A stretch of 41,426 nt of DNA. Source: Bacteroidota bacterium. GTDB lineage: Bacteria > Bacteroidota > Bacteroidia > Chitinophagales > Chitinophagaceae. This document shows, piece by piece, positions 12,984 through 23,840 of this stretch. A model generated the notes under the pieces. It made no database searches and was not told where the DNA came from. It worked only from the letters and a program-made list of their open reading frames with translations. Where the stretch lies: the NCBI GenBank assembly GCA_018267545.1, contig JAFDYG010000112.1, positions 1 to 41,426 on the forward strand. Reading direction: 5' to 3'. The translations under genes and the position numbers were made by a program. Position 1 is the first letter of the stretch; each line of letters starts with the position of its first letter.

Positions 12984-14204
12984 ATGAGGACTAGCTTGTT
13001 TGGAAGTCAAAATGGATACGACACTTTTGAGCGCAACATGCAAGAATTGCGCAATGAAATTTGGGCAAAAGACTTCGACTATATACTGAACGTAAACGTC
13101 AGCGAATGGCTCGAGTACTTTAAAAACAAGTACGAATATATCTCCATCACTCTCTATTTAGAGCAAGCATCTGTCCAATATAGGAATAAGCACGAAATCC
13201 AGAATATTCAATCCTATCGGCACATACATGCTCCGATTTATAATTTTAATATCGAAGTGCCTTTTATCGGGTCGAGTTTTTTGTTTTGCCTGAAACCTTC
13301 CAACTGTCGACTTAACTTTCCTGAAGTCGAAATTCCAAATGGAGAATCCGGGAAACTGATAAAAACGGTGGGAATACAGAACAACGACCCTAATCAGTTG
13401 GAACGAGAAAAGCAAACTTTCCTTGAAACATTAAGAGTCAATACGGAAAACATGAATAACGATGTCAGCCTTTATAATACAAGAATACCAAGGGTATTCC
13501 AAGACGCGTATAATCAAATAAAAGAAAAAGCCGAACAAGAACAGCGTTTTTTCAAGAGCATGAATATCGAAATAAACAAGGAAACAGACCGGATATTCAA
13601 AGTGCCGGTAATCGAACGAAAAAAAATACCTGAACCCATATTAGACAAGGGTGTACCTAAAAAGTATATCACTGATGTACCAGCTATCGATGATAAGTCC
13701 TATCATGATATTGTAGATACCATATACACCTTTTTCAAGGCCGTAGAAAAAAAACCTGCCATTTATGAATCTTTTAATGAAGAAGGCTTGCGGGATTACG
13801 TCTTACCCACTCTGGAAACCCGGTATAACAACGTCACTGTCACCGGAGAAACTTTTAATAAGGGCGGCAAGACCGATATTCTTATACGATATACCGATGG
13901 CACAAACCTCTTTGTCGCAGAATGCAAGTTTTGGGGAGGAGAAGCACTACTTCACGATACCATCAATCAGCTTTTCGATAGATATTTAACGTGGCGGGAT
14001 AGCAAAACGGCAATAATCCTATTCGTAAAAAACAAAGACTTTTCAAACGTGTTGAAGACTATTCAGGAATCAATACCTAAACATGAATATTATTTGAGAA
14101 AAGGGGAAGATAGAGGTGAAAGTTCCTTTTCCTATATCTTTCATTTTCCAGGAGACAAAGGTAAGGCCATTTATACTCAGATTATGGCGTTTCATCTGCC
14201 TTAA
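12984..14204 (+). CDS. PD-(D/E)XK nuclease-like protein
   Basis: 406 aa. The C-terminal domain (about 245-380) has the nuclease core: EEGLRDYVLPTLETRY, GKTDILIRY (Asp) and LFVAECKFWGGEALL (Glu-x-Lys), then QLFDRYLTWRDSKTAIILFV. This is the TDxxI...ECKxW form of restriction-like endonucleases. The N-terminal 240 residues have no recognised motif, with a charged helical region near 140-200. There is no methyltransferase or helicase beside it, so this is an orphan. Its place in the island, between TIR/caspase and toxin-antitoxin genes, suggests DNA-targeting defence, but the target is unknown. Confidence 0.7.
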   Translation: MRTSLFGSQNGYDTFERNMQELRNEIWAKDFDYILNVNVSEWLEYFKNKYEYISITLYLEQASVQYRNKHEIQNIQSYRHIHAPIYNFNIEVPFIGSSFLFCLKPSNCRLNFPEVEIPNGESGKLIKTVGIQNNDPNQLEREKQTFLETLRVNTENMNNDVSLYNTRIPRVFQDAYNQIKEKAEQEQRFFKSMNIEINKETDRIFKVPVIERKKIPEPILDKGVPKKYITDVPAIDDKSYHDIVDTIYTFFKAVEKKPAIYESFNEEGLRDYVLPTLETRYNNVTVTGETFNKGGKTDILIRYTDGTNLFVAECKFWGGEALLHDTINQLFDRYLTWRDSKTAIILFVKNKDFSNVLKTIQESIPKHEYYLRKGEDRGESSFSYIFHFPGDKGKAIYTQIMAFHLP

Positions 14205-14251
14205 ATTGCTACTTTGTTAAGTCTCCCTTTGGCTGGGCACTTTCTTTAATC

Positions 14252-14665
14252 TTAACTTCTACTACTCAAAAATTGGTCCGGCGTCAATACAGCTATTTCG
14301 CTGTTCTTAAAATCCTTAACATTACGCGTGACGATCGTTTTTACATTTCCTGATACAGCCGCGTAATGCTGCAAAGCATCTTCAAAATCGGCGAATTTCG
14401 AATCCAATGCTTGCAGAACGGCAACTTTAGAAAGAGCAATTATATCTATCAGCTTGGCTAATTGCGAGAGATTATCCATTACCTTTTGGTGAGAGCCCAA
14501 TTTACGAAGGATATAATAAGCATTCGAGAATACAAGTCCCGTTGTACATATGGATATTTCCTTTTTTTCGGATAAAGAAAAAATTCGTGCCGCATCCATT
14601 GCAAAGGGTTCTCGGGCAATCATAAAATCCAGTATAACGTCAGTATCGATAAATACCTTATTCAT
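14252..14665 (-). CDS. PIN-domain ribonuclease, VapC-type toxin
   Basis: 137 aa. PIN fold acids: FIDTDVILDFMI at the N-terminus, DSKFADFEDALQHYAA in the centre and IVTRNVKDFKNSEI near the end. PIN toxins cleave RNA, often tRNA, until held by the cognate antitoxin. Its start overlaps the antitoxin gene end by 8 bp, the usual arrangement of a type II module with the antitoxin first. Confidence 0.85.
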   Translation of the reverse strand: MNKVFIDTDVILDFMIAREPFAMDAARIFSLSEKKEISICTTGLVFSNAYYILRKLGSHQKVMDNLSQLAKLIDIIALSKVAVLQALDSKFADFEDALQHYAAVSGNVKTIVTRNVKDFKNSEIAVLTPDQFLSSRS

Positions 14666-14906
14666 ACTTTCTTAACTTCTCTTCTTTCAAAATCTTCTTA
14701 TAATCGAACTCATTTGGAGCTTTAAATGACCCCATCAAAGACTTTACCGTCGGGGTTAACTCTTCTGAAACTCCCGATTCCTGACCGGTAATTGATTTAA
14801 AATAGCTTTCAACCAGCTCCGATACGCTTTGTCCTTTAGCCTTTGCATAGCGTTTGGCCTTGCGGATAACTTGGTCGTCCAAAGTCAAGGTCAACTTAGT
14901 AGTCAT
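14658..14906 (-). CDS. Ribbon-helix-helix antitoxin (DUF6364-like)
   Basis: 82 aa from ATG 14906; an in-frame start at 14975 would add an unlikely hydrophobic leader. MTTKLTLTLDDQVIRKAKRY, then AKAKGQSVSELVESYF, is the RHH DNA-binding part. The acidic/basic C-terminus would wrap the PIN toxin. It is predicted to autoregulate through the repeated ATATACGT sites that overlap its start. Confidence 0.8.
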   Translation of the reverse strand: MTTKLTLTLDDQVIRKAKRYAKAKGQSVSELVESYFKSITGQESGVSEELTPTVKSLMGSFKAPNEFDYKKILKEEKLRKYE

Positions 14907-14938
14907 ATACGTGCATTTTTCATAATAAATATACGTAT
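14905..14938. promoter_or_regulatory. Repeated ATATACGT sites, probable antitoxin operator
   Basis: ATATACGT occurs at 14905-14912 and 14929-14936, 24 bp apart. The second extends to the palindrome ATACGTAT. They overlap the antitoxin start, as expected for RHH autoregulation. Confidence 0.4.
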
Positions 14939-14997
14939 TAAATATGACTAAACAAAACCAAGCAAGACTATTCATATCAAAGAATTGATTATCAACA

Positions 14998-15477
14998 TCA
15001 AAAGCTCCGCTTTATCCGCCCCATCACCAGCAGCCACGAAAAAAACACATGCACCGCCACCGAAATCACAAACAAATCCACCGCCTGCACCACATCCAAC
15101 CCAAATAGCCACCAGCTCACCAGGCTAACCCCAAAGCTGCTATCACTCTTATCCAGCAGCACGAACAAAACCCGATACCTTCCCGCCCTCCCCCCAGGCT
15201 CAATCCCAACCCTTCGCTTCAGCCAAGAATTAGGTAGCTCGAACAACACATAAGCCAGCCCCAGCAGAAACCCGGACATCGACCCGAAAGCCACCAACAT
15301 AAGTATACCATTCAACACAGGGACAACGACAAATCCCCTCCAGGTCTTATTCGCCCCAAACAACCTCCGCGACACCGGAACCGCCAGCGACGGAAACATC
15401 CCCCTCTTCACCACAACCATGTGGAGGACATTAGAAACAACCAACGGAACGATAACAGAAAGAATCAGAACTATCAT
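14998..15477 (-). CDS. CDP-archaeol synthase (CarS)-like integral membrane protein
   Basis: 159 aa from ATG 15477, 2 bp after the upstream gene's TAG; a TTG at 15498 is an alternative. Four to five hydrophobic helices. CarS/DUF46 hallmarks are RLFGANKTWRGFVVVP, a glycine-rich helix GFLLGLAYVLFELPNSWLKR, RVGIEPGG and LDKSDSSFG. CarS transfers CMP from CTP to a membrane lipid phosphate; archaea use it to make CDP-archaeol. The length is close to archaeal CarS (about 170-180 aa). It is the last gene of a four-gene operon, and the natural substrate here is unknown because no geranylgeranylglyceryl-phosphate synthase is in the window. Confidence 0.8.
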   Translation of the reverse strand: MIVLILSVIVPLVVSNVLHMVVVKRGMFPSLAVPVSRRLFGANKTWRGFVVVPVLNGILMLVAFGSMSGFLLGLAYVLFELPNSWLKRRVGIEPGGRAGRYRVLFVLLDKSDSSFGVSLVSWWLFGLDVVQAVDLFVISVAVHVFFSWLLVMGRIKRSF

Positions 15478-15479
15478 AA

Positions 15480-17840
15480 CTATAACATTTCCAAACAATC
15501 GATCATCCGAAAAGCATTCAAAAAGATCCGCTCAGCAAATTCATAATCCATCAATATCCTCCCCGCCATATAAAAGCTAACCCGCGTAACAAGATATTCC
15601 TTCAACGAATACGCATATGCCGCCTTCCATTCTTTCCACTCAACCACCCCGCCCTGCAAAGAATAATGATACCTCAAATACCGCTCAAGCTCCCTAGCCT
15701 CAAAATCCAACGGCAGCACAAAACTCAGTAGCTCGACAACATCCCGATGCGGAAAATTCCACACCGCAAGCTCCCAATCATAAATACAAATGCTACCATC
15801 CTTCCGCACACAAGCATTCCTCGGATTAAAATCATTATGAACGATCGTCTTGCCAATCCCAACCCCGCCCCTGGCCCCTACCCCAATCCGGTCATGCTCC
15901 GCTTCCAGCCCCGCAATAAACCCCGCAAGCCGGTCCACCAAACCCACCCACTCATACTCCTCATAATCTTTCCCAATAATCCGGGCCAGCTTTTCATACA
16001 ACGCAGCAGCCTTCCATGGCTCGAAAGCCCCAATAACCTCGCTACTACAACCCGACACACTCACCTGCGCCCCATGAATCGCCCTGATCGCCGACTCGAT
16101 AAAATCCGCAGACCACCTCCCCGGCTCATTTTCCGAATTAAAAAGCAGCAGCTCACGCTCATCCAACCGCTCCAGCAGCAGCACATACAACTCTCTCGCC
16201 TCATCCCTCCTGGCCCCATAATAAAAAGGCGTGCAAGAGAGCCCGCCCTTACGCAGCCTGTCATACAGCAAAATCTCCTTCTCATGACACCCCGAATATT
16301 CCAGCACATCCCGGTGCTCGACAATCAGATCCGCCAGCTCCGGGTCGATAGACGCAGCCATCAGGTGCAGCCCCTTGATCACCTCCGTATCCAATGGCTT
16401 GCTTTTTACCAGCACCGGCAGCTGCTCCGCCAAAGCAGCCGAAACATCCGAAACACCCGAAGCACCCAAAGAAATCTCCCTCAGACCAATATCCATCGGA
16501 ACAAAACCCACCAGCTTCTTATTGACCCTCCCCGCAAGCGAAGTCATAATCCCATTCTCGACTAACGTCCCCTCTGCAATCCTCACGCTCAACAGCTCCC
16601 GCTCATTCAAAAAACCATTCATACATCCCTTCACAAAATCCTTATTCAGCTCCGACTTCGTCAACCAGTTCACCGGCTTATTCCGCCCCAGCTTCTCATG
16701 CGCCTTCGCAAACTGACCCCCAACGATTGCCGCAAAAGTCGACACCTCCAGTGACAACGCAAAACCGGCAATAAGCTGAGCAAACCGCCCAATCTTGCCC
16801 GCTCCCGCACACCCCATCAATCCCAGCGCCTCCTGCTGCTTAGCCAGATGAGTACCTCCCCCTACCGTACCGATAACCAACGACGGCAGGCTAAGACTGC
16901 AATAAAGCCCATTCGGCGATTGCTCGATATTCAGCACCCCCACCGACGACTCATGAATCGACGCAAGGTCCTGCCCCGTCGCCGCAAAGATCGCCGCAAT
17001 AGCATTGGCCACGTTGATATTATAGCCAACCATTCCATCCAGCTGATTCAAAACACGAGACTGGTTGATACAACGGATAAAGTCCGCCGAGCTCGTCCGC
17101 AGGACCTTTTCGATAACCGCCTCCTGCAATTCGCACTCGGCGATCACGTGCACACCCCGCCCATGAGACAGCGAAGAATAAGACACCTTTTTATCGGACG
17201 CTCCATTTCCCTCGATCACGAAGTGAACCGGCTCGATCCCACTCTCCTCCATAAACTGCCGGTTGATCCAAAGAATCGCATGCCAGGTACAGGTCGTGGT
17301 CATATTCTGACCGGAAGCATCTCCCGTCGTGTACACGAATTTCAGATGAACGGCTTTCCCGGTAATAACAGGAACAATGGCCTGCAGCTTCGCATGATTC
17401 GAATACTGCTCCGCAACAAACCGTATCTGATCGAAATGCAACGAAACCCATTGCTGAAAGGCAACACTCTCACTAAGACTATCAAAGATAAACATCGGGC
17501 TCCGCGTCATCTTCTGATGAACGACAACAGCTCGAAAACCGCCGCTCTTACTGACAGCCTTTGCGCCCCGGTTCATACTGGCCACCAACGCGCCCTCCAG
17601 CGTAACGGCAGGAGCATAGACCATCTCGTCGCCATTAAACAACAACGGCCCAACCAGCCCCACAGGAATCTCTACAGAGCCGATAAATGATTCTATATTA
17701 TTTCTAATCATCATGGGCTCCAGTCCAGTCGCAGACAAAGAATCAACCAAAAATCCCATCTCCCGCAAATACCTTACCCGCATTTCCTTCGCATCATTGG
17801 TAACCAATCCCCTTCCGGGAACTATCGGATAGTTTTCCAT
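15480..17840 (-). CDS. HMG-CoA reductase fused to APH/choline-kinase-like domain
   Basis: 786 aa, two enzymes in one frame. Residues about 40-400 are a class I-type HMG-CoA reductase: IGSVEIPVGLVGPL, TLEGALVASMNRGAKAV (Glu82), GDASGQNM (173-180), ASDKK (Lys217/218), GQD (Asp291), PSLVIGTVGGGTHLAKQQEAL and KAH (His381). All four catalytic residues are present. Residues about 485-786 are a kinase of the aminoglycoside/choline kinase type, with catalytic loop VHNDFNPRN (Asp670, Asn675) and metal site IYDWE (Asp688). About 80 unassigned residues lie between. The start overlaps the previous stop as TAATG, and a CarS-like gene follows 2 bp later. The likely reaction is reduction of an acyl-CoA to an alcohol, then phosphorylation; mevalonate would be the simplest product. 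Confidence 0.88.
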   Translation of the reverse strand: MENYPIVPGRGLVTNDAKEMRVRYLREMGFLVDSLSATGLEPMMIRNNIESFIGSVEIPVGLVGPLLFNGDEMVYAPAVTLEGALVASMNRGAKAVSKSGGFRAVVVHQKMTRSPMFIFDSLSESVAFQQWVSLHFDQIRFVAEQYSNHAKLQAIVPVITGKAVHLKFVYTTGDASGQNMTTTCTWHAILWINRQFMEESGIEPVHFVIEGNGASDKKVSYSSLSHGRGVHVIAECELQEAVIEKVLRTSSADFIRCINQSRVLNQLDGMVGYNINVANAIAAIFAATGQDLASIHESSVGVLNIEQSPNGLYCSLSLPSLVIGTVGGGTHLAKQQEALGLMGCAGAGKIGRFAQLIAGFALSLEVSTFAAIVGGQFAKAHEKLGRNKPVNWLTKSELNKDFVKGCMNGFLNERELLSVRIAEGTLVENGIMTSLAGRVNKKLVGFVPMDIGLREISLGASGVSDVSAALAEQLPVLVKSKPLDTEVIKGLHLMAASIDPELADLIVEHRDVLEYSGCHEKEILLYDRLRKGGLSCTPFYYGARRDEARELYVLLLERLDERELLLFNSENEPGRWSADFIESAIRAIHGAQVSVSGCSSEVIGAFEPWKAAALYEKLARIIGKDYEEYEWVGLVDRLAGFIAGLEAEHDRIGVGARGGVGIGKTIVHNDFNPRNACVRKDGSICIYDWELAVWNFPHRDVVELLSFVLPLDFEARELERYLRYHYSLQGGVVEWKEWKAAYAYSLKEYLVTRVSFYMAGRILMDYEFAERIFLNAFRMIDCLEML

Positions 17841-18433
17841 TAGTGTTGTGTTTCGTTAAAAGAATCGGACCGACGCCTGTCCCTCAAAACCCAGTACAAT
17901 CCTCTCGCATTGGAGATCAATTCCGGCAGCACCAGCTGAACGCAGATATGCTCGATAAACGACAGAATCCCCCAAATAATCGCGAAGTAGTAGAAGGGAG
18001 TATAGAAACCAAACACAAACAGCGTAAAGAAGAACAACCCCTGAATATAGCCGCCTATCTTCCAGGAGTAAAGATGCAGGCTCGCCAGCCTTCTGAACTT
18101 GACCAGCGCTAAAAGGTCACAAACGATAAAAAGACCGATAAAAATCGAAAACGAAAAAAGATAAGGTTTGAAGTCCGCAGCCTTAAAACAGAACACGCCT
18201 ACAAAAGCCAGGATATAAGTTCCCAGGTCGGCAATAGAGTCCAATCTTGCGCCGACCTCCGTCATCATATTGAATTTCCTGGCGATCAACCCATCCAGGA
18301 TATCCGTCACCAGATTGATACACAGAAGCCAGGTAAACACAACAGCATTGCCGTGCAACGCAAAATACAGTACTACCGGAAAGCACAGGAGCCGGTAGAG
18401 AGAAAGAACATTAGGGATGTTTAGGGGTATCAT
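17840..18433 (-). CDS. CDP-alcohol phosphatidyltransferase, membrane enzyme
   Basis: 197 aa with about six hydrophobic helices. The CDP-AP signature is complete: DILDGLIAR, eight residues, then GARLDSIAD, giving D-x2-D-G-x2-A-R-x8-G-x3-D-x3-D. The family moves a phosphoryl group from a CDP-linked donor to an alcohol acceptor, making phospholipids such as PG, PS, PI or archaetidyl lipids. Substrate cannot be read from sequence. Its start overlaps the hydrolase stop (ATGA) and its stop overlaps the HMGR-kinase start (TAATG), so translation is coupled. Confidence 0.88.
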   Translation of the reverse strand: MIPLNIPNVLSLYRLLCFPVVLYFALHGNAVVFTWLLCINLVTDILDGLIARKFNMMTEVGARLDSIADLGTYILAFVGVFCFKAADFKPYLFSFSIFIGLFIVCDLLALVKFRRLASLHLYSWKIGGYIQGLFFFTLFVFGFYTPFYYFAIIWGILSFIEHICVQLVLPELISNARGLYWVLRDRRRSDSFNETQH

Positions 18434-19410
18434 ATTGAAGTTTTACATTTTACATACTCGATCATATCATCGGCAATTTTGTTCATAAAGAAGGCGACAC
18501 TAACATGCGCACATTCCAGCTCCATCTTCTCAGGGCGGCCATAGACTTCCCAAAGCATATACTGATAACGCGTCGGAACAACCTGGTCATAAAGGCTGAT
18601 GTATTGTTTGATATGCATAGCCTTCGTATGACAACCAACATACAATAGGTCCGCGACTGCCCATATCCTATTAGCATCGCACTTACCGATACCTCTATCG
18701 ATCAACACCCTCTTAATAGAACCGGTTATCTTACTTTCCCACAGGATGCTCCCTAGCTTTGCCCCGGTTATCAAAGGGAAATAAAAATGAACCGGCTCCG
18801 CCGTAATCGCCAGCCCCGCCTGGAATCCGCCGCTGCTCATCCCAATAATCCCGACATAATCATATTGCTTGCGCATGTACTGGATCAGCAGCCGGATTTC
18901 TGCGACATACTGCCTGAAATTTTCGATCGTCAGGTACAAATGTGGACTGATAAAATATTCACCCGAATAAGAACCCCGGGGAGCCCGTTCCTGGTGATAT
19001 GGAACACAAAGCAGCCCCGCATCGATGCCGCCCCGCATCAAACGCGCACAGAACTCCTTTTCCAATCTAAGATTGGGTCTCGCCCATCCAGGCGAGAACA
19101 GCAATAAAACGTTGGACCGCTTACCTGTATTACGAAACCACCTGAAAGGAACCAGGTTATTTTCCGTCCACGGAGTGACCACCGGTGAATCGAAAAGCAG
19201 CGGATGATATCCATACTTTTCTACATCCGCCCTATCCACAGCGGCACAATGAAAACCGTTCTTTAAATTGTCAACACCGGTATAGATCATGTCTTTATAA
19301 ACCTCCCCAGGACAACGATCTTCTTCCCAAAAAGAACTCCCGCTCTTGTACGGCGCCTGGAAATAATAAAGGTCATCTACCGATTGAAATATCTTTTTCG
19401 CCAACCACAT
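18430..19410 (-). CDS. Alpha/beta hydrolase, first gene of the HMGR/CDP-alcohol operon
   Basis: 326 aa. Core: VLLLFSPGWARPN (oxyanion region), YVGIIGMSSGGFQAGL with nucleophile Ser192, LYDQVVPTRYQYMLWE with Asp275, and ECAHVSV with His302, a complete triad. There is no signal peptide, so it is cytoplasmic. It resembles uncharacterised bacterial lipase/esterase-like proteins. In this operon it might release or remodel an acyl or lipid intermediate. A well-spaced promoter sits almost on the ATG at 19410, so the transcript may be leaderless or translation may start downstream (next Met at 19290, which would remove 40 residues but keep the triad). Confidence 0.72.
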   Translation of the reverse strand: MWLAKKIFQSVDDLYYFQAPYKSGSSFWEEDRCPGEVYKDMIYTGVDNLKNGFHCAAVDRADVEKYGYHPLLFDSPVVTPWTENNLVPFRWFRNTGKRSNVLLLFSPGWARPNLRLEKEFCARLMRGGIDAGLLCVPYHQERAPRGSYSGEYFISPHLYLTIENFRQYVAEIRLLIQYMRKQYDYVGIIGMSSGGFQAGLAITAEPVHFYFPLITGAKLGSILWESKITGSIKRVLIDRGIGKCDANRIWAVADLLYVGCHTKAMHIKQYISLYDQVVPTRYQYMLWEVYGRPEKMELECAHVSVAFFMNKIADDMIEYVKCKTSI

Positions 19411-19414
19411 TCGA

Positions 19415-19446
19415 CAAACCTACCCTGCAGCCCCCGCTATCCCAAA
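19415..19446 (-). promoter_or_regulatory. Promoter of the HMGR/CDP-alcohol operon
   Basis: On the - strand, TTTG at 19443-19446, a 20-bp spacer, then TAGGTTTG at 19415-19422, a full TAnnTTTG box. The box ends only 4 bp before the annotated ATG, implying a transcription start at or near the A of the start codon. Confidence 0.55.
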
Positions 19447-19578
19447 CGGATATCAAAAACCTTATTGCGGCCAATCGCATTTTTCCGCAATAAGCCCGTT
19501 TCCCTATCTCCAACAAAGGATTATCCTTTGCAGTTACGACAAATAGCCCCGGCAGTCGCAGAAAACCGTAAATAAACC

Positions 19579-19605
19579 TTCCGTTTTTACGGAAAATCCG
19601 TAAAA
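19579..19605. promoter_or_regulatory. Overlapping palindromes between divergent genes, possible operator
   Basis: TTTTACGGA (19585-19593), a 3-bp spacer and TCCGTAAAA (19597-19605) form a perfect 9-bp inverted repeat. It overlaps a second one, TTCCGT-TTTT-ACGGAA (19579-19594). They lie about 95 bp upstream of the GH31 gene and 170 bp upstream of the hydrolase, suggesting a regulator site or an mRNA hairpin. Confidence 0.45.
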
Positions 19606-19700
19606 CACATAAACCGCAGGACTTACGCCGATTTTGCCTGATTCTTACCCGATTTTGATAAGTCGATCACCTCCTATTCCGATTTCCTTATCTTGAAATC

Positions 19701-21890
19701 ATGATCAAGAATATCCTTCTTCCGATAGCACTCTTCTGCCTTTATAACAAAGCAGCCTTGGGACAAACCTTATTATACAAAGACACCCCCGCCCACCTGA
19801 TCATCCAGCCAGCCGGCCCTCACAGCATCCGCATCAAACTAAGCAATAAACCAGGCCAAGAAAACAACGCCCCCAATAACCCCGCTTTTATATCCCACAG
19901 CTGGGGCAAGCCGGTCTCCCTCACCGCCGGCCGCGCTACCGTCAGCGGACTAAATATAAAAGTCTCCTACAGCCCCCTCACGATCAACATCACCAATAAA
20001 GCCAAAACAGTATCCCAAACCTTCACGATCGATCAAAAAACCGGCGAACTATCCTTCGGAATCGACGACGGCCCCGTCCTCGGCCTCGGTGAAGGAGACG
20101 AAAAACTGGACAAACGCGGCCGGCTCTACACCATGAGAAACGGACAAGTCAACCGCGAAGACATCATGTGGATCGCCAGCATCCCCGTGCCATTCCTAAT
20201 CGGCACCAAAGGCTGGGCCTTCTTCGTCGCCACACCCACCGGCCAGGTCGACCTCACCGGTAAAACAGGAAAATTCACCCCCAATACCACCGCAAGAGAC
20301 TACGTCGACGGCCCGCTGGATCTAATCTTCTTCGACGCCAGCCAGCCCCTCGACATGATGAAAGAAGTAATAGACCTCGTCGGTCAGCCCGTCCTCCCGC
20401 CCAAATGGGCATTAGGCTACATGCAATCACACCGAACCATCGACAATACCACACAAATGCTATCGGTGGTAGACAGCTTCCGTAAAAAGCAGCTCCCACT
20501 GGACGCAGTAATATATCTGGGCACCGGCTTCGTAAAAAGCGGCTGGAACAAAGGGCATGATATCATGGAGTTCAATCCCAGCGTATTCGATATTTCCCCC
20601 AAAGATTTTATCGACCAGGTACACCAGCGTCATACCCGGATCGCAGTACACATAGTGCCTCCCACCATCGGCGGCAGGCTGCAGCTGCATGGCTCCATCC
20701 CAGTCCGCACCGACGAGACAGAAGACAGCACCAGCATCTCTCTCTATTGGCGGAGACATTTGCCCATCTTCAACCTGGGAATGGACGGATGGTGGCCCGA
20801 CGAAGGCGACGCCTATTCGATAAAATCAAGATTCCTACGCGCCGAGATGTATTATAAAGGCCCCCTTAGCGAAAGACCGAACGAGCGCCCCTGGAACCTC
20901 CAACGCAACGGCTACCTCGGCGTCGCCCGTTACGGCGGCTGGATCTGGTCCGGCGACGTACGCTCCAAATGGGAAACCCTGAATGCACAAATAGCTGTCG
21001 GTCTCAATTATTCTTTAACCGTATCCCCTTTCTGGGGAACCGACAATGGCGGCTTTGTCTCCTCCAAAGAACTAACCGGCGAGCTCTATACAAGATGGTT
21101 CCAGTTCTCCACCTTCTGCGCATCATTCCGCTCGCACGGACGCTCCTGGAACCTCCGCCTTCCCTGGGGATGGAACACGGGCAAATACGGCGTCAATGAA
21201 GACCAGGCTATCAACGTACCCGACAGCTCCGAGCTGCACAATCCCCGGGTCGAGCCGATCTGCCGGAACTTCCTGAACCTCCGCTACCAGCTCCTGCCCT
21301 ACAACTATACCGCCGCCCGCGAAGCCCGCGACAAGGGCCTTCCGATGATGCGCGCTTTATGGCTGTACTATCCGCACGACACAACCGCCATCAATCAAAC
21401 GACCGAATACCTCTGGGGCAGCGAAATGCTCATCGCTCCCATAACCGAAAAAGGAGCCGTCAAAAGAGATGTCTACCTCCCCGCAGGAAGCTGGTACAAC
21501 TGGTGGACGAACAAAAAAGAAACCGGTAACCAAACCGTTAGCTGCGACGCCGACCTCGACATCATGCCCATCTACGTAAAAGCAGGCGCCATCATCCCCC
21601 TCGACCCCATCAGACAATACACGGACCAGCCCGTCACAGAACCAACCAGCATCAGAATATACGGCGGCGCCAACGGCAGCTACACCCTCTACGACGACGA
21701 CGGTAAAACGCAGGAATACCTAAAAGGCCAGGGAACCTGGACCCAATTCTCCTGGAACGACAAGGACAAGAAGCTGACCATCAAACCCGGCACAGCCTCT
21801 ACATCCAAGATCTTCAAAATACAGCTCATGGGAACCAACAAAGAAAAAGTGGTCACCTACACCGGCGCACCACTGGAGGTCAAACTATAA
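19701..21890 (+). CDS. Glycoside hydrolase family 31 (alpha-glucosidase/alpha-xylosidase type), secreted
   Basis: 729 aa with signal peptide MIKNILLPIALFCLYNKAALG. An N-terminal beta-sandwich (about 25-210) precedes the barrel. Barrel motifs: LPPKWALGYMQSHRTI, GMDGWWPDEGDA with the nucleophile Asp in WPDE, GGWIWSGDVRSKWETL with the acid/base Asp, and SPFWGTDNGGF. A C-terminal beta domain ends near residue 729. GH31 enzymes release alpha-linked glucose or xylose. Exact specificity cannot be set from the motifs. It is divergent from the hydrolase operon and ends 3 bp before the convergent kup gene, so it is a monocistronic unit 8 kb from the PUL. Confidence 0.9.
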   Translation: MIKNILLPIALFCLYNKAALGQTLLYKDTPAHLIIQPAGPHSIRIKLSNKPGQENNAPNNPAFISHSWGKPVSLTAGRATVSGLNIKVSYSPLTINITNKAKTVSQTFTIDQKTGELSFGIDDGPVLGLGEGDEKLDKRGRLYTMRNGQVNREDIMWIASIPVPFLIGTKGWAFFVATPTGQVDLTGKTGKFTPNTTARDYVDGPLDLIFFDASQPLDMMKEVIDLVGQPVLPPKWALGYMQSHRTIDNTTQMLSVVDSFRKKQLPLDAVIYLGTGFVKSGWNKGHDIMEFNPSVFDISPKDFIDQVHQRHTRIAVHIVPPTIGGRLQLHGSIPVRTDETEDSTSISLYWRRHLPIFNLGMDGWWPDEGDAYSIKSRFLRAEMYYKGPLSERPNERPWNLQRNGYLGVARYGGWIWSGDVRSKWETLNAQIAVGLNYSLTVSPFWGTDNGGFVSSKELTGELYTRWFQFSTFCASFRSHGRSWNLRLPWGWNTGKYGVNEDQAINVPDSSELHNPRVEPICRNFLNLRYQLLPYNYTAAREARDKGLPMMRALWLYYPHDTTAINQTTEYLWGSEMLIAPITEKGAVKRDVYLPAGSWYNWWTNKKETGNQTVSCDADLDIMPIYVKAGAIIPLDPIRQYTDQPVTEPTSIRIYGGANGSYTLYDDDGKTQEYLKGQGTWTQFSWNDKDKKLTIKPGTASTSKIFKIQLMGTNKEKVVTYTGAPLEVKL

Positions 21891-21893
21891 TTA

Positions 21894-23840
21894 TCATTCC
21901 CTGACCAGCGGCGCAAGCGTCACCGGCGCAACAACCACCGGATACTTCTCGATCGTCACATTACTCCGATCGAGCCCGAAGTTGACCTGCTCCCTCACGC
22001 TTATATAACGAAGATTAAAATAGCTCCGCATCAAAAAACGCTTCCAAAACGGAAACTCATTTTCAAAAGAAAGAAACGGCTCCATAATCAAAAAACGAAA
22101 ATCCCCCATCGCACTTTCCTGGTAACGCTGCTCATACCGATCCGACAAGTCTACCTCCCTGGACTTAATCAGGTCCTTAACGATCTGCGCAAAATAATAG
22201 TCCACCCTCGGTTCCACCCGAAACCCCAGGTTGATAGTGATAAAATAAATATCGTTAGGAACCACCGCCTCCACATGGTACTTAGACGCATACGGCTCAT
22301 CCAGCACATTGACATGCAAAAACCAATAGATATCCGCCCGTTTCGGAGACTTCGACAGGATAGAATCGATAGCCGTCTTTTCAATCAGCTTCGACGAGCT
22401 CGAAGAGGTCAGATAAACCAGGTTCGTGGCATACTTCGGAATATGCTCGTCCGCACTAAGCCCCTTCAGCAAAGCGATATATTGATCACAAGGCACCAGC
22501 CCGATCATCGTATTCTTTATCCTCCTCCCCTTGTACCAGGTAAACATCACCCCAAACAGACAGGCCCCCAGCAACAAGGTAAGCCAGCCTCCCTCCTTGA
22601 TCTTTTGAAAATTAGCGATCAAAAACCCAATCTCGATAAACAAAAACAACCCCGTAAGCGCCATAACCGCCGCAACCGGCACCCGCCGGGAAACCAGATA
22701 AAAATTAATAAGGATAGTGCTCATCAGCATCGTCAACGTCACGCTTAACCCAAAAGCCGCCTCCATCCGGGTAGACTCCTTAAAATAAAGGACCATCCCT
22801 ATACACCCGACCATCAAAAACCAATTGATAAAAGGAATATAGATTTGCCCCTTGATATGACCCGGAAAAAGCACCCGGTGCCGCGGCCAGATATCGAGCC
22901 GAATCGCTTCGTTAATCAGCGTAAAGCACCCGCTGATCAATGCCTGGCTGGCGATAATCGTCGCAAACGTTGCAATGATGAGCGACGGCAGGTAGATCGC
23001 CTGCGGAACGATATGATAGAAGGGGCTGATAATCCCCGTCGTATCACCAACGTGCTGCAAAAGCCAGGCCGTCTGCCCGGCATAGCTCAGGATCAGCGTA
23101 ATCTTGATGTAGACCCAGCTGACGCGAATATTATTCCTCCCGCAATGCCCCATATCGCTGTATAACGCCTCCGCACCCGTGGTACAAAGAAAGATACTTC
23201 CCAACAGCCAGAAACCTCCGGGAGAATGACTAAGCATATCATAGGCATAATAGGGATTCAATGCTTTCAATACCCCGGGATTGTCCTTTAACGCAAAAAC
23301 ACCAAGAATACCGATAAACGTAAACCACACCACCATTACCGGCCCAAAAATCTTACCGATCTTATCCGTTCCAAACTGCTGAAACAAAAACAGGATGATC
23401 AGGATCACAATGACAATCCCCTCCGTCTGCATATGCGGATTTATCGCCTGCAACCCTTCGATAGCCGAGGCCACCGAAATAGGCGGTGTAATAATCCCAT
23501 CGGCCATCAGAAAAGCGCCCCCCGCCATGGCCACGAAGATTAGCCATTTACCGGAAACACGCCGTATCAGCGCATACAACGAAAATATCCCTCCTTCCCC
23601 CTTATTATCCGCCTGTAGCGTGATGATGACATATTTCAATGTCGTTTGAAAGAACAAAGTCCAAAAAATAGCAGACAACGAACCCAGCGCAATATCCTCG
23701 GTAATAACACGGTTATGAAAAACGGCATTCAGTGTATAGAGCGGAGAAGTACCGATATCCCCGAAAACAATACCTATCGCTATTAAAATCCCCGCCTTAG
23801 AAATACTCTTGTGAAAAGACGCAGTTGAAGATAAGTCCAT
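21894..23840 (-). CDS. kup: Kup-type potassium uptake transporter
   Basis: 648 aa, about 12 hydrophobic segments in the first 440 residues and a cytoplasmic C-terminal domain of about 190 residues. Family motifs: GIVFGDIGTSPLYTLNAVF at the N-terminus, DNKGEGGIFSLYALIRR, and GAEALYSDMGHCG. It takes up K+ together with H+ across the inner membrane. The stop is 3 bp from the GH31 stop (convergent). Length fits the family. Confidence 0.95.
   Translation of the reverse strand: MDLSSTASFHKSISKAGILIAIGIVFGDIGTSPLYTLNAVFHNRVITEDIALGSLSAIFWTLFFQTTLKYVIITLQADNKGEGGIFSLYALIRRVSGKWLIFVAMAGGAFLMADGIITPPISVASAIEGLQAINPHMQTEGIVIVILIILFLFQQFGTDKIGKIFGPVMVVWFTFIGILGVFALKDNPGVLKALNPYYAYDMLSHSPGGFWLLGSIFLCTTGAEALYSDMGHCGRNNIRVSWVYIKITLILSYAGQTAWLLQHVGDTTGIISPFYHIVPQAIYLPSLIIATFATIIASQALISGCFTLINEAIRLDIWPRHRVLFPGHIKGQIYIPFINWFLMVGCIGMVLYFKESTRMEAAFGLSVTLTMLMSTILINFYLVSRRVPVAAVMALTGLFLFIEIGFLIANFQKIKEGGWLTLLLGACLFGVMFTWYKGRRIKNTMIGLVPCDQYIALLKGLSADEHIPKYATNLVYLTSSSSSKLIEKTAIDSILSKSPKRADIYWFLHVNVLDEPYASKYHVEAVVPNDIYFITINLGFRVEPRVDYYFAQIVKDLIKSREVDLSDRYEQRYQESAMGDFRFLIMEPFLSFENEFPFWKRFLMRSYFNLRYISVREQVNFGLDRSNVTIEKYPVVVAPVTLAPLVRE

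What the first reader, a model, noticed from the sequence alone, without database searches (positions are those of the whole stretch)
14998..19410. Four-gene operon joining HMG-CoA reductase, kinase, CarS-like and CDP-alcohol phosphotransferase
Seen: four same-strand genes with ATGA and TAATG overlaps and a 2-bp gap, under one TTTG-N20-TAGGTTTG promoter. They encode an alpha/beta hydrolase, CDP-alcohol phosphotransferase, HMGR-kinase fusion and CarS-like protein. Known: HMGR reduces an acyl-CoA to an alcohol, CarS activates a lipid phosphate with CTP, and CDP-AP enzymes transfer from CDP-alcohols. Inference: the locus builds a phosphodiester lipid or head group by reduce, phosphorylate, activate and transfer. 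An alternative is an archaeal-type isoprenoid lipid branch. No GGGP or DGGGP synthase is visible here.
Basis: partly seen in the sequence, partly recalled or inferred. Interest (0 to 1): 0.87.

Follow-up and report, generated by a model that had tools for sequence, protein, structure and literature searches.

The report
Fatty-alcohol lipid operon mislabelled HMG-CoA reductase
A gene annotated as the cholesterol-pathway enzyme HMG-CoA reductase looks instead like a recently described fatty-acid reductase fused to a kinase, in an operon that probably turns fatty acids into an unknown kind of phosphate-linked membrane lipid in many bacteria.

Summary
The four genes, their junctions and the HMGR-kinase fusion are confirmed. 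Three of the genes recur as a unit; the alpha/beta hydrolase matched nothing in 73 other loci. The reductase domains of the fusions form one tree group (100/99) with members from Bacteroidota, Bdellovibrionota, Pseudomonadota, Thermodesulfobacteriota and a Streptomyces plasmid. Of 55 fusion loci, 34 carry CarS-like, 24 a PPDK/Rph-like protein, 19 CDP-alcohol phosphotransferase and 5 a UbiA-type protein within 6 kb; 42 carry at least one. In one gammaproteobacterium CDP-alcohol phosphotransferase and CarS are one protein.

The HMGR domain is probably not an HMG-CoA reductase. The four catalytic residues are kept, but the HMG-pocket residues are changed (Ser684 to Glu/Asp, Lys735 lost, Leu862 to Phe). 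This is the signature published in 2025 for FcrA, an HMGR homologue that reduces fatty acyl-CoA and not HMG-CoA (PMC11948995).

[quoted passage not shown] Step one is strongly inferred; the rest is inference from gene neighbourhood. I found no description of a FcrA-kinase fusion or CDP-fatty-alcohol route in the searched library.

The parts
14998..15477 (-). CarS-like membrane CTP transferase, 159 aa from ATG (166 aa from an upstream TTG); five long helices in the predicted model
15480..17840 (-). FcrA-type (HMGR-fold) acyl-CoA reductase fused to an APH-type kinase, 786 aa
16680..17840 (-). reductase domain (about residues 1-387): catalytic E82, K217, D291, H381; pocket E210, S261, F377
15480..16400 (-). 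kinase domain: K481, HNDFNPRN 668-675, D688
17840..18433 (-). CDP-alcohol phosphotransferase, complete D-x2-D-G-x2-A-R-x8-G-x3-D-x3-D motif
18430..19410 (-). alpha/beta hydrolase (GMSSG motif), same transcription unit but not conserved with the system
19415..19446 (-). Bacteroidota-type promoter-like site TTTG-N20-TAGGTTTG, 4 nt before the first start codon; function uncertain

Best explanation
The operon makes a phosphodiester lipid from a fatty acyl-CoA. (1) The N-terminal domain is a FcrA-family reductase: acyl-CoA + 2 NADPH gives a fatty alcohol. (2) The fused APH-type kinase phosphorylates that alcohol at once to an alkyl phosphate. (3) The CarS-like membrane protein activates the alkyl phosphate with CTP to a CDP-alkanol. 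(4) The CDP-alcohol phosphotransferase moves the alkyl-phosphate group onto an acceptor hydroxyl (acceptor unknown). Step 1 is strongly inferred from residues, tree and published biochemistry of relatives; steps 2-4 are inferred from fusion, operon structure and intact motifs. Nothing here was shown experimentally.
For: Catalytic Glu/Lys/Asp/His 56 of 56 fusions (the 56 include L022 and L072, which are one contig). FcrA signature: position 210 (human Ser684) E in 51 and D in 5 of 56; the column aligned with Lys735 is Ser 52, Ala 2, Gly 2 of 56; position 377 (human Leu862) Phe in 56 of 56. Three solved class I HMGR enzymes (archaeal, Arabidopsis, human; five sequences shown) have Ser at 684 and Lys at 735 (read from the printed alignments), and a Streptomyces HMGR in an annotated mevalonate cluster has Ser/Lys/Leu (L151). 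Published: FcrA reduces long-chain acyl-CoA (no NADPH oxidation below C14), not HMG-CoA, with Glu replacing Ser684 (PMC11948995, abstract and sections 18-20 read whole). Kinase motifs: K481 56 of 56; H 55, and D, N, D 54 each of 56, the gaps being L066 and L075 where the contig ends. The kinase halves of L080 and L082 match EcKL, the ecdysteroid kinase-like family. Class II-type HMGR fused to a GHMP kinase in the same phylum (L147, L148) shows the logic of fusing a reductase to the kinase of its product. CarS adjacent or overlapping on the same strand in 32 of 55; CDP-AP-CarS single protein in L080. Acid-activating genes (AMP-binding or GH3) lie near related reductases in L080, L119, L123, L149, L153, L154.
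Against: No substrate is known for any fusion member. The characterised FcrA group has Trp, not Phe, at the Leu862 position and an N-terminal alkyl-carrier domain that most fusions lack (residues before the core: median 46, range 15-201, against median 171). 8 of 56 fusions have a Lys at 259-261, near the Lys735 place. 13 of 55 loci show none of four partners within 6 kb; 7 of these have at least 2 kb on both sides (L023, L041, L043, L052, L068, L077, L081). Several loci carry PPDK/Rph-like proteins, UbiA, or thymidylate-kinase-like genes that this scheme does not use. Known CarS acts on a two-chain lipid phosphate (recalled).
Confidence: 0.45

Rival explanations
1. Ether-lipid route with archaeal-type order: the fatty alcohol or its phosphate is used for an ether bond (by UbiA where present, otherwise an unlinked enzyme), and CarS and CDP-AP act afterwards on the resulting alkyl-glycerol phosphate.
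For: UbiA-type, CarS and CDP-AP genes stand together with the reductase in L076 (fusion gene split over frames), L080, L082 (its UbiA-type ORF has no Pfam match) and, partly on the opposite strand, L071; L033 and L034 have UbiA plus one of the other two. A PlsC-type acyltransferase and a desaturase occur in another operon type. PMC11948995 proposes ether lipids for some FcrA.
Against: No UbiA of this type in the window's genome; UbiA-type within 6 kb in only 5 of 55 loci. The fused kinase would be needed only if the alkyl group itself is activated, and saturated alkyl diphosphates are poor UbiA donors (established knowledge, recalled).
Confidence: 0.22
2. True HMG-CoA reductase and mevalonate kinase: mevalonate or phosphomevalonate becomes a head group or feeds isoprenoids.
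For: Pfam PF00368 far above cut-off; all catalytic residues kept; Lys692 equivalent kept 56 of 56.
Against: HMG carboxylate contacts changed; NCBIfam HMGR score 279.5 against cut-off 441.8; DXR in 8 of 8 and diphosphomevalonate decarboxylase in 0 of 8 genomes.
Confidence: 0.08
3. Archaeal-type isoprenoid phospholipid branch (GGGP, DGGGP, CarS, archaetidyl transferase).
For: CarS fold; GGGP synthase homologue in the genome.
Against: GGGP synthase just as frequent without HMGR (14 of 14); no operon-type UbiA in the genome; the reductase has the fatty-acyl signature.
Confidence: 0.05
4. CDP-AP and CarS are generic phospholipid genes whose adjacency to the reductase-kinase is loose; the reductase-kinase makes alkyl phosphates for another use such as outer-membrane or exopolysaccharide anchors, possibly with the PPDK-like protein.
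For: 13 of 55 loci have no partner within 6 kb; the partner set varies between lineages.
Against: CarS adjacent in 32 of 55; CDP-AP-CarS single protein; CarS-like is not the usual bacterial CdsA (recalled).
Confidence: 0.15

Closest known systems
FcrA, HMGR-related fatty acyl-CoA reductase (Natronomonas pharaonis, 'Ca. Promineifilum breve'; PMC11948995)
   Same: HMGR fold and catalytic residues, Glu for Ser684, Lys735 lost, bulky residue for Leu862; the paper says that bacteria with the HMGR-like homologue and not the canonical one also lack other mevalonate-pathway enzymes
   Different: Fused C-terminal kinase, no N-terminal alkyl-carrier domain, Phe instead of Trp, linked to CarS and CDP-AP instead of wax synthase; words beginning with kinase, CDP or UbiA do not occur in that paper's main text
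Class I HMG-CoA reductase (6hr7, 1dq8)
   Same: Fold and catalysis; 37% (6hr7) and 30-32% (human) identity in the structural alignments
   Different: Substrate pocket; no mevalonate genes around
CDP-archaeol synthase CarS (5guf)
   Same: Fold; KT..G, NS..KRR.G..G and D[KQ].D motifs in most relatives
   Different: The window protein is below family cut-offs; ELPNS in place of the archaeal GD motif (archaeal motif recalled)
CDP-alcohol phosphotransferases (PgsA, PssA, archaetidyl transferases)
   Same: Complete catalytic motif
   Different: No equivalog cut-off reached; acceptor unknown
Kennedy pathway (kinase, CTP transferase, CDP-alcohol transferase; recalled)
   Same: Order of reaction types
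   Different: The activated alcohol would be a fatty alcohol and the CTP enzyme a membrane CarS-like protein
Class II-type HMGR fused to a GHMP kinase (L147, L148)
   Same: Reductase fused to a kinase, there presumably mevalonate kinase
   Different: Unrelated kinase family; neighbours are mevalonate-pathway-like ORFs

Membership tests
FcrA (fatty acyl-CoA reductase, HMGR superfamily) | Catalytic Glu559/Lys691/Asp767/His866 equivalents | tested here: met
   E82, K217, D291, H381: 56 of 56 fusions
FcrA (fatty acyl-CoA reductase, HMGR superfamily) | Ser684 replaced by Glu | tested here: met
   Window E210; E 51, D 5 of 56 fusions (D in L022/L072, L065, L073, L080); E 11 of 11 stand-alone; E 21 of 21 N-extended relatives
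FcrA (fatty acyl-CoA reductase, HMGR superfamily) | Conserved Lys735 (printed Lys795 in the paper; my reading) replaced by small residues | tested here: met
   Aligned column S 52, A 2, G 2 of 56; local alignment uncertain by 1-2 residues, Lys at 259-261 in 8 of 56 fusions and 1 of 21 N-extended
FcrA (fatty acyl-CoA reductase, HMGR superfamily) | Leu862 replaced by a bulky residue | tested here: met
   F 56 of 56 fusions; W 21 of 21 N-extended relatives; L in both Streptomyces comparators
FcrA (fatty acyl-CoA reductase, HMGR superfamily) | N-terminal alkyl-carrier (Lad) domain, present in only some FcrA | tested here: not met
   By length only: median 46 residues before the core in fusions against 171 in N-extended relatives
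FcrA (fatty acyl-CoA reductase, HMGR superfamily) | Reduces long-chain acyl-CoA, not HMG-CoA | not testable with these tools
   -
Class I HMG-CoA reductase of the mevalonate pathway | HMG-binding Ser684, Lys735, Leu862 | tested here: not met
   comparators L151, L156 meet it
Class I HMG-CoA reductase of the mevalonate pathway | Other mevalonate-pathway genes in the genome | tested here: inconclusive
   Diphosphomevalonate decarboxylase 0 of 8 (no independent positive control); HMG-CoA synthase 0 of 8 but also 0 of 8 in genomes with a mevalonate cluster
CDP-archaeol synthase (CarS) | Family score and fold | tested here: inconclusive
   Window protein below Pfam and NCBIfam cut-offs; fold match to 5guf, TM about 0.6, E 0.12; relatives in L080 and L082 pass the Pfam cut-off
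CDP-archaeol synthase (CarS) | CTP:lipid phosphate cytidylyltransferase activity | not testable with these tools
   -
CDP-alcohol phosphotransferase | D-x2-D-G-x2-A-R-x8-G-x3-D-x3-D and Pfam cut-off | tested here: met
   Motif letters invariant in 21 of 21 aligned; 73.4 bits, cut-off 22
APH-type kinase | Pfam cut-off, H-x-D-x4-N and second Asp | tested here: met
   46.5 bits, cut-off 23.2; motif residues 54-55 of 56, gaps only in L066 and L075

The most novel reading that the evidence does not exclude
Probability: 0.38. Interest if true: 0.82.

Novelty: new variant of a known kind. Interest (0 to 1): 0.68.

Why it matters
Genes named HMG-CoA reductase in bacteria that use the MEP pathway are an open puzzle: PMC13001223 (passages) notes several Streptomyces species with HmgR plus a complete MEP pathway and asks for further study. 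Here the FcrA signature extends to a reductase-kinase fusion in several phyla, including one Streptomyces plasmid, and the operon predicts a concrete lipid chemistry. If true, it adds a route that joins fatty-alcohol metabolism to CTP-activated phospholipid assembly, with an enzyme fold known from archaeal membrane synthesis, and it would move these genes from isoprenoid to membrane-lipid metabolism in annotation. Named isolates in the set (Kordia periserrulae DSM 25731, Kordia jejudonensis, Niastella vici) make it testable.

Tried and rejected
HMG-CoA synthase as a test of a mevalonate pathway: 0 of 8, but genomes with a mevalonate cluster also gave 0 of 8, so dropped. DXR: 8 of 8 in both sets, so it shows that MEP is present but does not separate the sets. 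GGGP synthase: 8 of 8 with and 14 of 14 without HMGR, no link. PPDK-like orthologue in the window's genome: only distant paralogues (best 220 bits against 994-1125 for operon members). I first took window E50 as the catalytic Glu; the literature numbering showed that it is E82. In some searches my ORF picker took wrong-strand frames for several GC-rich loci; repeated with blast selection, and only the later counts are used. Five mevalonate-cluster or HMGR-GHMP loci (L011, L013, L015, L016, L148) gave no blast hit and are not in that alignment; L009, L010, L012, L014, L147 and L154 were left out of the tree. The diagnostic columns were not taken out before the tree was built. Structural detail of the pocket could not be read: no coordinates were laid out, and the fold search listed only HMGR-domain matches, so the kinase domain was not placed by fold; by sequence its only PDB hit was a choline kinase at E 0.07. 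Literature: 10 of 10 searches used. The library holds open-licence papers only, so 'not described' means not found there.
Full report
What is there. On the minus strand, 19410 to 14998, four genes follow each other with ATGA, TAATG and 2-bp junctions: an alpha/beta hydrolase, a CDP-alcohol phosphotransferase, a 786-aa protein whose first half is PF00368 (HMG-CoA reductase fold) and whose second half is PF01636 (APH kinase), and a CarS-like membrane protein. The CarS-like assignment of the window protein rests on sub-threshold profile scores plus a confident AlphaFold model whose only convincing solved match is CDP-archaeol synthase 5guf, TM about 0.6, Foldseek E 0.12; distant relatives in L080 and L082 pass the Pfam cut-off. 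The whole-fusion model (mean pLDDT 86.4) matches archaeal and human HMGR over about 370-400 columns. The promoter-like site is real, but it ends 4 nt before the first ATG.

How common it is. In the window's family, 16 of 294 genomes have an HMGR hit. Eight lie in mevalonate clusters with mevalonate kinase-, diphosphomevalonate decarboxylase- and isomerase-like ORFs, by my reading of the sequences. Eight, the window included, are class I-like without such neighbours (one, L021, ends with the contig inside the gene); three of these eight are fusions. A scan of one-genome-per-species contigs found 58 loci encoding relatives of the fusion. Over the window and L017-L089, 55 loci carry a fusion ORF longer than 600 aa (window included, the duplicate contig L022 dropped). 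Within 6 kb, profile search found CarS-like in 34, PPDK/PEP-utiliser in 24, CDP-alcohol phosphotransferase in 19, UbiA-type in 5, any of these in 42; in the 37 loci with at least 2 kb on each side the numbers are 25, 14, 17, 3 and 30, and 7 have none. The profiles were built partly from these same loci, and several species are close relatives (Kordia and neighbours), so the counts are not independent events. CarS is adjacent or overlapping on the same strand in 32 of 55. The hydrolase gave no blastp match (E 1e-3) in the 73 other loci, some of which have short flanks.

Two remote loci matter most. In a gammaproteobacterium (L080) the order is UbiA, fusion, PPDK-like, a 368-aa protein without Pfam match, AMP-binding ligase, then one 396-aa protein with CDP-alcohol phosphotransferase followed by CarS-like, both over their cut-offs. 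In Desulfobacteraceae (L082) the order is fusion, PPDK-like, an ORF that only my own profile calls UbiA-type (no Pfam match), CDP-alcohol phosphotransferase, CarS. A maximum-likelihood tree of 98 reductase domains puts the fusions on one side of a branch (59 rows, support 100/99), from Bacteroidota, Bdellovibrionota, Pseudomonadota, Thermodesulfobacteriota and a Streptomyces plasmid whose reductase is fused to an APH kinase and lies next to a GH3 gene. The group also holds L076 (split gene) and L079, whose gene ends after the reductase with no kinase in the 717 bases that follow. The program flags long branches for L152, L153, L078, L077, L080, L076, L067 and L062, and warns that the joins of L082/L084 and of L153 and its group with the N-extended group may be false, so the deep order is unsure.

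Not HMG-CoA reductase. All four catalytic residues (E82, K217, D291, H381) are kept in 56 of 56 fusions (56 counts L022 and L072, one contig, twice). The HMG-binding residues are not: human Ser684 is E (51) or D (5) of 56; the column aligned with Lys735, which makes the salt bridge to the HMG carboxylate (PMC9500038, passage), is S 52, A 2, G 2; Leu862 is F in 56 of 56. The local alignment at Lys735 is uncertain by one or two residues, and 8 of 56 have a Lys at 259-261. Stand-alone relatives give E 11 of 11 and F 10 of 10 readable; relatives with a long N-terminus give E 21 of 21 and W 21 of 21. Other plasmid or single relatives differ: D and F in Vibrio and Photobacterium, A and W in Alteromonas (L149) and L134. 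Comparators from the mevalonate pathway keep Ser and Lys (three solved enzymes in five sequences) or Ser, Lys and Leu (Streptomyces L151 in an annotated mevalonate cluster, and L156, unannotated). After I had this pattern, a search turned up PMC11948995 (ISME J 2025; abstract and sections 18, 19, 20 read). [quoted passage not shown] from the salt-bridge description I take this to be Lys735). The signature is therefore known; its presence in the kinase fusions and their operon is what is added here. The eight genomes have DXR and no detected diphosphomevalonate decarboxylase. HMG-CoA synthase could not be used, because the search also failed on mevalonate-cluster genomes.

Most likely mechanism. 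Acyl-CoA is reduced to a fatty alcohol by the FcrA half, phosphorylated by the fused kinase, activated with CTP by the CarS-like protein, and transferred as alkyl phosphate by the CDP-alcohol phosphotransferase. The fusion argues for kinase action on the reductase product, as do class II-type HMGR-GHMP kinase fusions in the same phylum (L147, L148). The kinase and transferase motifs are intact, and the kinase halves of L080 and L082 match EcKL. An acid-activating gene lies near related reductases in six loci looked at (AMP-binding in L080, L119, L123, L149, L154; GH3 in L153); I did not count how many others lack one, and none was seen among the nine genes at 12984-23840 scanned in the window. 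What remains unexplained: the PPDK/Rph-like proteins, the UbiA proteins, and a set with a nucleotidyltransferase and two thymidylate-kinase-like genes, in two loci also a serine palmitoyltransferase-like gene. An ether-lipid variant, in which UbiA uses the alkyl group before CarS and CDP-AP act, is the main rival.

Against the archaeal-isoprenoid reading: GGGP synthase is in the genome but also in 14 of 14 HMGR-free relatives, and the operon-type UbiA was not found in the window's genome. PMC7852524 (passages) describes archaeal-type lipid genes in Ca. Cloacimonetes and reports no CarS there; a word search for HMG in it gave 0 occurrences.

Novelty. The main text of the FcrA paper has no word beginning with kinase, CDP or UbiA, and my searches for the combination found no description. 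This is a new variant of a known enzyme kind inside what may be an undescribed lipid pathway.

Noticed in passing
window 14252-14975 (-): PIN_3 protein and DUF6364/RHH protein directly downstream of the operon on the same strand, a VapBC-like toxin-antitoxin pair; GC 0.377 against 0.498 for the window.
   Followed up: no
window 12984-14204 (+): 406-aa protein without Pfam match; its C-terminal half reads like a PD-(D/E)XK nuclease-type domain (recalled motif, untested).
   Followed up: no
L147, L148: Class II-type HMGR fused to a GHMP kinase in relatives of the phylum (Pfam), next to further mevalonate-pathway-like ORFs.
   Followed up: partly
L119, L123, L124: N-extended FcrA-type genes followed by a 100-aa protein and an AMP-binding ligase (Pfam for L119 and L123; L124 by sequence start); 21 such N-extended proteins carry E and W at the diagnostic positions.
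   Followed up: partly
L017-L020, L141-L146, L154: Stand-alone FcrA-like genes, most of them in operons with UbiA (Pfam L017, L141, L142, L154) and a PPDK/Rph-like protein; L143-L146 read by eye from ORF starts. DUF3419 in L017, L020, L154; CDP-AP in L018 and L019; CdsA-type in L018; a dolichol/phytol-kinase-like ORF (recalled resemblance, no Pfam match in L017 and L018) in L017, L018, L020.
   Followed up: partly
L085, L059, L037, L051, L035: Variant set around the fusion: PPDK-like, NTP_transf_5, two thymidylate-kinase-like genes, and in L085/L059 a serine palmitoyltransferase-like gene (clusters; Pfam/NCBIfam on L085 only).
   Followed up: no
L153 (Streptomyces sp. NBC_01435 plasmid): FcrA-APH fusion next to a GH3-family acyl-activating gene in an actinomycete.
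   Followed up: partly
L149 (Alteromonas) and L134: HMGR-like genes with Ala at the Ser684 place and Trp at the Leu862 place, near an AMP-binding gene in L149: perhaps a further substrate class.
   Followed up: no
G040, G124, G130, G134, G181, G198, G279, G284: Genomes with a mevalonate cluster give no PF01154 HMG-CoA synthase hit and also have DXR: how they make HMG-CoA is unclear.
   Followed up: no
L037: A MAG labelled Candidatus Sericytochromatia carries a fusion that nests among Bacteroidota in the tree; possibly a misbinned contig.
   Followed up: no
L079 8883-10079: Member of the fusion group whose gene ends right after the reductase; no kinase in the following 717 bases.
   Followed up: partly
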